The notes below the pieces were generated by a model, which saw nothing but the letters and a program-made list of their open reading frames with translations, searched no databases and was not told the origin of the DNA. Of a stretch of DNA of 64,000 nt, positions 43,614 through 54,696 are shown in pieces. Each line of letters starts with the position of its first letter. Position 1 is the first letter of the stretch. The DNA is taken from NCBI GenBank assembly GCA_021014945.1, contig MU266403.1:1-64000 (forward strand), read 5' to 3'. The stretch comes from Leucogyrophana mollusca (lineage: Eukaryota > Basidiomycota > Agaricomycetes > Boletales). The position numbers and the translations under genes were made by a program.

Positions 43614-44287
43614 TGTGAGCCTGACTGTCATCGGGAAAGAGCTTTTTGGAAGAGAGATTTGTGTAGGGGTAGGCGTCCGATATGTTCAAGTAGCGAGATA
43701 CACGAGGACCGTGTACAGCATCCGAACTAGAGGCAATGCAGTCATGGCAGGTCATGGCGAGGCACTTAAGTCGCCTCAAAGGGTCCTGTGAATTTCTCAG
43801 CCTTGAGTGCTGTATGTAACTCCATCATTTGCTGTACTTCTGATATGACATTGCCTGTCAGTGGTCCGAGGATAATCTTTGGTACTTCCAAGGCCGTCCA
43901 TTTCCTGCCAAAAATTGAGAAGGGGAAAACTGCACCCCGTTGAGTTGATTCTCGGGGACTGGGAGGCCTCAAATACTATCAGCGAAGGCGCGCCATTGCT
44001 GCTGAAATGGCGATATCAATCCCAGTATCTCGGGATACGACGACGAACAAGTTGGCAAATGGTTGTGGTTGAAGCGCTTGTGATGGATCGATCGGCTCTG
44101 TGCGAGGTCAAGAAAAAACGTTAATTAAACGTGCCGGCGGCCCGCCGGGTAATGGCGAGACATCCGCCACCCCGCCCATACAAGTAATCAAAGGACCCCA
44201 AATACGCAGTACGTAACTCCACCTTTGAACTCCACCCGCCAAATTGACTTTTTTCCGCCAATCTCGCGCACCGACCTCAAGAACACC
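43614..44287. other. Intergenic DNA before SNF1
   Basis: Divergent promoters of the double GTPase and SNF1. No gene recognised; a short minus frame at 43766-43972 lacks support. Confidence 0.5.
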
Positions 44288-46624
<2,337 letters not shown>

Positions 46625-51477: not shown

Positions 51478-54400
51478 TCACTGTGGCTGCGACGATTGCC
51501 CACGATTGCCCGAACGAACAGAAAAGCGGCGCGTGAGAGCTCGTTTCTGTTTTTGAGCTATGCTGAGCTGCCTATGCATGGCCGCACGATCTTGCGGAGA
51601 CCCCACGCTTCGACGGATCAAGTCTTGGAATTTGACGACGAGTTGCGTCCACCATCGAACCAGAACAGTATACGCAGAGGTCTCGGATAGTGGCTTTCCT
51701 TCGTCCACCATCTCTTTCTGCAGTTGAATGGGTTGACGATCTGCAGTGTGAAATTTATCAATGATTTCCCAAGCCGACTGGAACGTCGAGGAGAAGCGAG
51801 TCACGCGAGAGCCATGATCCATGAAGGGCTTCCAGAATTGCGTCCGGAGCTGGTCCTCCCGTCGGTTTCCTAATTCTATGGGAACTTCATCCCACATCGT
51901 CGTGGTCAAAATGACGTTCTGTAGTGCGCCCACGCCGCACAGCTCTTCAAACATCGACAGATTCCGGATCGGCGCTCCGCGCATTCTACTCTCTGAGATA
52001 CTGTGAAAGTATAGGATACCAGTCAATGTGATGTGTTTTTTATAACTAGAGGGACGGAAGTCCGATCAGCGCTCCCAGCTCCCCTAGGGGCAAATGCATA
52101 CTTACGTGGCTTCCAGCCACACGGCAATCTCTTTGAGGACATCACAGTCCGTCCTCTGGGTGTCGTCAAAGCCTGGTGTATCGACGAGTACGATATTGCG
52201 CCCGCTTCCGTCGGGGTGAAGGCAGCTGAATGCGCGAACATGCTGCGTACACGATTCTAGAGTGTGACCGACGCGAGCCGATGATCGCCTTCTCGCTGCA
52301 TTTATAAACTTGTATTTTCGTCAGAATCCGCACCTGCTGTTAATAAATGTACTTGCCGAGCTCTTGCCAGTGCCAGTTGGGCCCATTACGCTAGCGAGAT
52401 TCGATGTCAGGCCCATCGGAACTACCCAGTGAGGTGTGTACTCACGCAATAATCATGTCCTCATCGGTGAATGTCACCGCTTCATCGTCATAAACTGATG
52501 CTCTAACGGACTCGTTAATACTGGGAGTGGCCGGGGATGATTGTGTGATTCCTGGCGCAAAAACGTGCGATCTTTGCGCACTTAAAATCCCAGAATACTG
52601 AGGGATATTGGGTTGCTGACGAGGGGTGAAATATGAGCCGGATGGACCTCCTGTGCTATTTTCTGAAGGTACAGGCGTGGCCAAGGGCGCAGTGGCGAGT
52701 GTAGAAAGGAGACGGGAAGTGAAATCTTTTTGTTGATCCTTGACAGGTTCCTCGCGACTGGGAATATCTGGATGAGACCGCAACTGCTGGACAACTTCAT
52801 TTGCCTTGGGGCGGCAGTCAGGATCCGCATCCCAGCATTTCTCGATCAAACTCCAGATCACGTCATCTAGCTCAGGGCTATCAGGGCGGGGAGGCCGTTG
52901 GTGTTGCGCGACAGCCATGATGGCGTGAGGAAGAGCAAACTCGGAGAAGCGCGGTCGCCCAGCATAAATCTAGGACTAGGTGAGCCCCAAGAAGGGACGA
53001 GAAAGACTGCTTAACGGAACCTCGTAACACACGCAGCCAAACGAATACATATCTGTGGCACAACTTTTTCGTTTCCGCTCCGTTCCTTCGTACTGTAACA
53101 GCTCGGGAGCTAGCCAAAGGAGGGACCCAGCTCCAGATGAACTGGAAGCAGGCGAAAGTTGCACATTCAAATCTTCTGCGAGCGTGCACAGACCAAAATC
53201 GGCAACGCAAGCCCTCGATTCTGAAGTGATGAGGATATTTGCCTAAATAATACGTCATTAAATGGGGCGGGGCATAGTCTGCAATTACTAACGCCTTTCA
53301 GGTCGCCATGAATCACGGGGGGGTCGAAGGAGTGCAGATAGTCAAGACCTTGGGCGACATCTAGCATCTGTCGACAACTGTGATTATTATGCTACGCCGA
53401 GATCCCGCTTGAGCCACGTACCAGTGACAGCCGATTGGCTTGCGCATTTTTCCCGAGGTATTGTGAAATGTTCCCGTTAGTCATCCACGGTGATACGAGG
53501 CACACTCGAGACGGAGTCTCAGGCAAGCGATATACACCGCAGAACGGTAAGACGTGTGGATTGGAGAGTTGTCCCCACAGAACCGCTTCTTTCGAGAACG
53601 CCTAGGCGCTAGCGTCACCCAAACCGAATAAACACTAACTCGAGATACGCACCTTGATTAGACTTTCCACAGCGGGGGTATCGAATACTCGCAAAATCTT
53701 GATAGCAACAGCGTGACCCGCTAAGGTCCCTTTACAAATGTCTCCAAAGCTCCCACCGCACACCGGATTGAGGCCACGGGTATCAAGATTCCGGAGAACT
53801 AGGCACTCCGGATACAGTCCAGAATTTCGGGATAGCTTGATTATCGCCCTCACTAGAGCCGGACGAATGCCACCAAGCGGCAAGATATCGAGGAGCTATA
53901 TGAAATGCATTAGTTAAACGGTCTATAACAACCAGAGCGCAATCATAGGCGACAGATACCTCTTGAAAGAGATCAAGTAAGGACTGGGCATCTAGTTCTT
54001 TCTTGTCTTGTAGCAGCTCCCGCCGATGAGGATCTTTGATAATAATCCATATTCGAGCGGAAATACACAGTGCATCGAGTTTCAGAATATTTTTGAGTAG
54101 CGTTTCAGCTCCGGTAGCACCATCTTGCGGTAGTGAATGCTCTGAGTCGTGAGAGCCACGATGCTTATGAGGTTTGCTTAGCAAAAATAGCAATGCCTGG
54201 TTTCTTTGAGTCCAACGTACCACTTTGCATCGACTAAGGTATATTCGTAAAGTATCGTTGATGGAACGATACTTTACGAGCTGGGCGATATCGTCAGCAC
54301 TGGTGGTCCACTCGCGGTATTTCGTTTTCAAGGCGTTCTCCAGTCTGAACAATCAACACGTTTACTAATGTGCCACGACGGTGAACGAACCGAGACCGAC

Positions 54401-54696
54401 GGGCAACACACCTGGGTCTAGAAACCTTCACAAGCTGTAGAATGTACGCGTAGAATCGCTGCAGGCACGCTCTATTAGAGATTCGTCAACTTCCTAGCGA
54501 GTTTTTGGCTAACTGGGTATATCAGGGCGATCTCAGCACCATCATGTTCTCTTCCAAATCCATGAATCGACGCGATCTTCAGTATCTGTAAGCTGTTGGC
54601 ACGAAGCCAATCACCTGGAGCATCGACCAAGGAAATGGAGGTTTCGAATTCCCCAAGTGCATCACCAAATCGCGAGATCGAAGAATCGGTAGACAT
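51478..54696 (-). CDS. TKL kinase fused to AIG1-like GTPase
   Basis: Exons read with confidence: 53960-54344, 53653-53895, 53422-53601, 53293-53367, 53021-53242, 52446-52969, 52357-52390, 52106-52308 and 51478-52045, all in phase (over 810 aa). A further exon 54412-54471 fits upstream; the start (ATG 54696?) is unresolved. N-terminal helical region of about 150 residues; kinase: GGSFGD loop, VAIK, KEAVLW, HGDLKGAN, DFG, LAPELL, DMYSFGCVCYE, CRPKANEV. Then a Ser/Pro-rich linker of about 100 residues, and DMIIA entering a 34-nt P-loop exon (GPTGTGKSS), a 203-nt exon (INAARR, VGHTLESCT, DTPGFDDT) and a last exon (YFHSISESR, TTTMW, coiled tail). The G-domain exons have exactly the sizes of the free GTPases. 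The P-loop intron starts GC instead of GT. The G4-like Lys is Met here. Confidence 0.85.

What the first reader, a model, noticed from the sequence alone, without database searches (positions are those of the whole stretch)
51478..54696. Kinase-GTPase fusion: TKL kinase joined to an AIG1-like G domain
A complete-looking kinase domain (G-loop, VAIK, HGDLKGAN, DFG, APE all present) is spliced in frame, through a Ser/Pro linker, to a G domain with the exact 34-nt and 203-nt exons of the free GTPases in the same cluster. This indicates exon-level capture of a neighbour gene by a kinase gene. A kinase plus a nucleotide-switch domain with a coiled tail would be a new signalling architecture if expressed. 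The G4-like TTKW is TTMW and the P-loop intron has a GC donor, so specificity or splicing may have changed.
Basis: partly seen in the sequence, partly recalled or inferred. Interest (0 to 1): 0.9.

Follow-up and report, generated by a model that had tools for sequence, protein, structure and literature searches.

The report
Mushroom kinase fused to GTPase switch
The gene looks like a genuine fusion of a protein kinase with a GTP-binding switch domain; it belongs to an old family shared by several mushroom lineages rather than being a recent accident, and it may be an uncharacterised way of wiring a kinase to a nucleotide switch.

Summary
On the minus strand, 54696-51478, an 11-exon model gives one 887-aa protein: helical N-domain, TKL-type kinase, disordered linker, G domain, helical tail. 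The public Leucogyrophana mollusca (Boletales) protein is identical except for one extra 57-nt intron and uses the same kinase-to-GTPase junction and GC donor. The proposed origin is wrong: the G domain is not a captured neighbour. It groups with 24 other kinase-fused G domains from 12 mushroom genera (support 100/99), away from the free GTPases beside it. Kinase and G trees share 13 of 20 splits (shuffles: mean 0.2). Both domains are under purifying selection; the junction intron is conserved in the five fused genes of this type found in the genome. TTMW is no oddity: none of 25 core fused G domains has TTKW. The GC donor is private. The lineage is modular: an AIG1-type G domain sits in the same place at two points of the kinase tree, and a branch without a detected G domain expanded in this species. 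Best mechanism (inferred): GTP-dependent G-domain pairing brings kinases together, as proposed for ROCO proteins. No transcript data; my searches of open-access papers found no description.

The parts
54514..54696 (-). exon 1: start codon and first helices of the all-alpha N-terminal domain
54412..54458 (-). exon 2, N-terminal domain
53960..54344 (-). exon 3, N-terminal domain; the public annotation removes 54220-54164 as a 57-nt in-frame intron
53653..53895 (-). exon 4: end of N-domain, kinase glycine loop (GSFG) and VAIK lysine
53422..53601 (-). exon 5, kinase N-lobe and hinge
53293..53367 (-). exon 6, catalytic loop HGDLKG
53021..53242 (-). exon 7, DFG and APE, activation segment
52446..52969 (-). 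exon 8: end of kinase C-lobe, Ser/Pro-rich disordered linker, and strand beta-1 of the G domain (DEDMIIA)
52391..52445 (-). junction intron (55 nt, GTGAGT...CTAG); retention would stop translation at once, just before the P-loop
52357..52390 (-). exon 9, 34-nt P-loop exon (VMGPTGTGKSS), followed by the GC donor GCAAGT
52106..52308 (-). exon 10, 203 nt, with DTPG
51478..52045 (-). exon 11: rest of the G domain (TTMWDE, SAW) and C-terminal helices

Best explanation
The gene encodes one protein, N-domain + TKL-type kinase + flexible linker + Toc34/GIMAP-like G domain + helical tail. The fusion is inherited: it is shared by the sampled Boletales and Agaricales, so it predates their split unless it moved horizontally (sequence and trees). 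Inferred mechanism: the G domain is a switch that pairs or oligomerises when GTP-bound; through the flexible linker this brings kinase domains together, they phosphorylate each other in trans and then substrates, and GTP hydrolysis ends the signal. The N-domain, or swapped-in modules in sister genes, would supply input or location. Copy-number turnover and G-domain swapping suggest a fast-evolving recognition or conflict role, but no target is known.
Confidence: 0.5

Rival explanations
1. Two adjacent genes, a kinase and a GTPase, merged by gene callers here and in other species.
For: The regions hold tandem kinases and GTPases; some annotated fusions look like read-throughs (P0122, G domain first; the second G of P0002, which groups with free GTPases). 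Adjacent genes inherited together would also give congruent trees. No RNA data.
Against: No stop or gap between the domains; strand beta-1 lies on the kinase exon; the junction intron is conserved in 5 of 5 loci; in six proteins of Hypsizygus, Lyophyllum, Tephrocybe, Tricholomella and Tricholoma only 30-41 aa separate the kinase match from the P-loop, which leaves no room for a promoter in those models; records of 12 genera show the same order.
Confidence: 0.08
2. Recent exon-level capture of a neighbouring free GTPase by a kinase gene.
For: The neighbours share the 34-nt and often the 203-nt exon and the splice phases.
Against: The G domain groups with fused G domains of other species, not with the cluster's free GTPases; four more fused genes with this type of G domain exist in this genome.
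Confidence: 0.02
3. A real fusion in which the G domain is a scaffold, membrane tether or decoy and does not gate the kinase.
For: The G4 lysine is absent in 25 of 25 core fused G domains; DAPK1 precedent; the kinase lineage drops or replaces the G domain and persists.
Against: P-loop and DTP[G/S] in 25 of 25 and purifying selection on the G domain argue for nucleotide binding; replacement by another G domain argues that a switch is wanted.
Confidence: 0.35

Closest known systems
ROCO kinases (LRRK2, DAPK1, Dictyostelium Roco4)
   Same: A kinase and a GTPase in one chain; GTP-dependent pairing proposed, and DAPK1 also has the kinase at its N terminus (PMC4104024, passages); the Roco4 kinase is among the 60 best solved chains by sequence, below TNNI3K, CTR1 and RIPK2.
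   Different: No Roc or COR domain among the Pfam matches; G domain nearer to Toc34/GIMAP; kinase followed directly by linker and G domain; found here in mushrooms.
GIMAP/AIG1, Toc34 and septin-type GTPases
   Same: Among the nearest folds and distant sequence matches of the family's G domain.
   Different: AIG1 Pfam score under cut-off; fused to a kinase; G4 lysine absent.
Fungi-specific TK-related kinases of Agaricomycetes (FslK; 'TKL-ccin')
   Same: Expanded TKL/TK-like kinases of mushrooms (PMC3937382, passages); one fused homologue, P0031, is named TKL/TKL-ccin in its record.
   Different: The word GTPase does not occur in that paper's main text; membership not tested.
Fungal NOD-like receptors
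   Same: Modular effector plus nucleotide switch; protein kinase is listed among NLR N-terminal domains (PMC4986451, passages).
   Different: No NACHT/NB-ARC and no repeats found in this protein.

Membership tests
TKL/TK-like protein kinases (Pfam PF07714) | domain score over cut-off with catalytic motifs | tested here: met
   134.9 bits against 23.1; GSFG, AIKI, HGDLKGAN, DFG, APE
AIG1/GIMAP family (PF04548) | Pfam score over cut-off | tested here: not met
   25.5 bits against 27; MMR_HSR1 is met, 33.9 against 21.9, and GBP narrowly, 23.1 against 21.1
AIG1/GIMAP/Toc34-type fold | closest solved folds | tested here: inconclusive
ROCO | Roc followed by COR domain | tested here: not met
   no Roc or COR among the 19 Pfam families listed at E up to 1
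Fungal NLR | NACHT or NB-ARC domain | tested here: not met
   none listed; nSTAND1 12.7 bits against 27.1
Fungal NLR | C-terminal WD, ANK or TPR repeats | tested here: not met
   no repeat family listed; the tail is modelled as two helices
FslK | position in the FslK clade of the kinase tree | not tested
   reference sequences not fetched

The most novel reading that the evidence does not exclude
Mushroom-forming fungi evolved their own class of kinase switches, parallel to ROCO proteins and NLRs: a TKL-type kinase gated by a pairing GTPase, with the GTPase slot exchangeable (two different G-domain types, or none), used as a rapidly turning-over recognition or immune repertoire.
Probability: 0.25. 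Interest if true: 0.8.

Novelty: new variant of a known kind. Interest (0 to 1): 0.55.

Why it matters
Kinases joined to a GTPase in one chain are best known from ROCO proteins such as LRRK2, where how the switch controls the kinase is still argued over. A separate, compact kinase-GTPase family with natural swaps of the switch and natural losses would give a comparative test of that question. It would also offer a function for part of the unexplained expansion of TKL-type kinases in mushrooms.

Tried and rejected
Local capture of a neighbour: contradicted by the G tree. Holding exactly the 25 core fused G domains as one clade is itself rejected (AU p 8e-6), because two entries without a detected kinase lie inside: P0028, which begins at the P-loop and may be a truncated model, and P0013. 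One origin of the AIG-type attachment: the four kinases labelled as carrying it are rejected as one clade (AU p 1.9e-6); one of the four, P0121, was labelled from an AIG1 ORF downstream in the genome, not from its record. Annotated fusions outside the core kinase clade (P0075, P0081, P0093, P0120) and those with the G domain first (P0122, P0155) may be independent fusions or merged models; I did not resolve them.

Fold searches of the full-length model (50 rows shown, 50 rows shown) displayed only kinases; the N-terminal domain was not searched alone, so nothing is claimed about its fold. An intron-retention switch at the junction was considered and dropped: retention stops translation before the P-loop in 4 of 5 paralogues but reads through in frame in the fifth. 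NCBIfam gave only matches far under cut-off.

Limits: homologue sets are seeded by this protein and by one free GTPase; lists were cut at 120 of 249 and 120 of 130, and one search used E up to 1e-60, up to 1e-20. In one search one of 132 kinase-bearing proteins was dropped (P0027, short match) and one kinase domain per protein was used. In one search G matches under 90 bits or 170 aa, and any beyond two per protein, were dropped. The FastTree results (37, 38) were repeated with a careful method on fewer, hand-picked rows (40: 44 rows; 42: 65 rows). In one search not all residues could be mapped to codons (705 of 860 for P0012); several synonymous distances exceed 2. The tree is a quick one without bootstrap; its genomic rows are residues of pieced tblastn matches, stops left out.

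Full report
What is there. The minus strand from 54696 to 51478 carries an 11-exon gene with one continuous 887-aa frame. The contig (C77, 113,360 nt) has the length of the contig of public protein P0001 of Leucogyrophana mollusca, order Boletales. P0001 differs from my model only by an extra 57-nt in-frame intron inside exon 3 (all its 868 residues map to this locus), and it joins kinase and G domain at the same place, through the GC donor. Pfam finds a tyrosine/serine-threonine-type kinase and an MMR_HSR1 GTPase over cut-off, GBP narrowly over, AIG1 under. AlphaFold2 on a 62-protein alignment gives an all-helical N-domain (residues 1-211), the kinase, an unfolded linker (523-588), the G domain and two tail helices, mean pLDDT 83.9, pTM 0.65.

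Not a local capture. Three homologue searches (two of the lists capped at 120) gave 345 proteins. By phmmer with pieces of this protein, 29 have kinase followed by G domain (15 with the N-domain), 3 have kinase followed by an AIG1-type G domain, 2 have the G domain first. In a tree of 268 G domains, 25 of the 29 kinase-fused rows fall with 2 others in one starred clade; the free GTPases of this cluster lie elsewhere. A careful tree of 65 chosen rows gives that clade 100/99. The core comprises 12 genera: Leucogyrophana, Hygrophoropsis, Suillus, Hypsizygus, Lyophyllum, Tephrocybe, Tricholomella, Tricholoma, Flammula, Cyathus, Laccaria and Mycena (names as given; that the first three are Boletales and the rest Agaricales is recalled except for Leucogyrophana). 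The kinase tree gives the matching clade (99/96). On 23 shared proteins the two trees share 13 of 20 splits; 1000 shuffles average 0.2, maximum 2. The seven splits on each side that differ include deep ones, so the order at the base is open and horizontal movement is not excluded.

Is it one gene? No RNA was available. For it: the last strand before the P-loop is on the kinase exon; an intron of 54-55 nt at the same place and phase precedes the 34-nt exon in 5 of 5 loci of this genome where this kinase and this G type adjoin; 4 to 116 aa, median 69, lie between the kinase match and the P-loop in the 25 core proteins (the shortest, P0031, may be a skipped exon). Both domains are under purifying selection: dN/dS for the kinase 0.115-0.27 in four comparisons and for the G domain 0.11-0.37 in three (the fourth, P0001-P0020, is saturated); the N-domain gives 0.18 and 0.38; several synonymous distances are above 2 and rough. 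The linker is looser (ratio about 1.0 in one pair over 30 codons, 0.28 and 0.22 in two others, saturated in the fourth).

Oddities explained. TTMW: among 25 core fused G domains 14 have TTMW, 11 another letter, none TTKW; among 239 other rows 85 have TTKW and 82 TTMW (the four fused rows outside the core are three TTMW and one TTKW, counted apart). The GC donor is found only in this gene; the four paralogues have GT. The catalytic loop reads HGD in the 23 of 25 core proteins where the motif was found, that is, without the usual arginine; that such 'non-RD' kinases are frequent in immune signalling is recalled.

A modular lineage. The same N-domain plus kinase carries an AIG1-type G domain in P0123 and P0134 of this species and P0161 of Hygrophoropsis (a single ORF in the two own-genome loci). 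These kinases, with P0121, are not one clade (AU p 1.9e-6). The AIG1-type domains split likewise, and a domain from a locus in which no kinase was found (L001) groups with that of P0123 (12 rows, 11 different). A further branch of 16 genes read from this genome, plus the records of two of them, lies beside P0001 inside the fused clade. No G domain was found in the stretches fetched around them, though one (L048) ends about 100 bases past the kinase. Loss followed by expansion is the simplest reading. Records with WD40 (P0126) or NACHT (P0191) before the N-domain were seen but may be merged models.

Literature. Searches listed no paper that, from its title, abstract start or the passages I opened, describes this fusion; only open-licence papers are held. 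One search was for the organism. Passages were read in PMC2838846, PMC4986451, PMC3937382, PMC7159879, PMC10197012, PMC12881547, PMC5604158, PMC12258605, PMC9815663, PMC4102429 and PMC4104024; no whole paper was read. PMC12258605 set aside an orthogroup with MMR_HSR1/AIG1/septin matches while collecting NLRs.

Noticed in passing
L016, L017 (own genome, C196 and C367): The same kinase family is fused to a different, AIG1-type G domain.
   Followed up: yes
P0102, P0103 (Trichoderma): Records combine PNP_UDP, an MMR_HSR1 G domain of this family and ankyrin repeats: an NLR-like layout with a GTPase where an NLR would have NACHT.
   Followed up: no
L013, L014 (own genome, C116): A free-type GTPase lies upstream of an N-domain kinase on the same strand; the pair in L014 is annotated as a single protein (P0122).
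   Followed up: partly
L001 and L039 (C116:2.8-4.7 kb): A G domain of this family is followed by an AIG1-type G domain on the same strand, perhaps a double GTPase.
   Followed up: no
window 44153-45598 (+): Open frames of a conserved kinase that looks like Snf1/AMPK (name recalled from the sequence) lie between the GTPase cluster and the fusion gene.
   Followed up: no
P0082 / L012 (C116:72 kb): A fused paralogue has GFG instead of DFG and a shorter G domain in its record, perhaps decaying.
   Followed up: partly
P0126, P0191: Records with WD40 or NACHT in front of the same N-domain and kinase.
   Followed up: no
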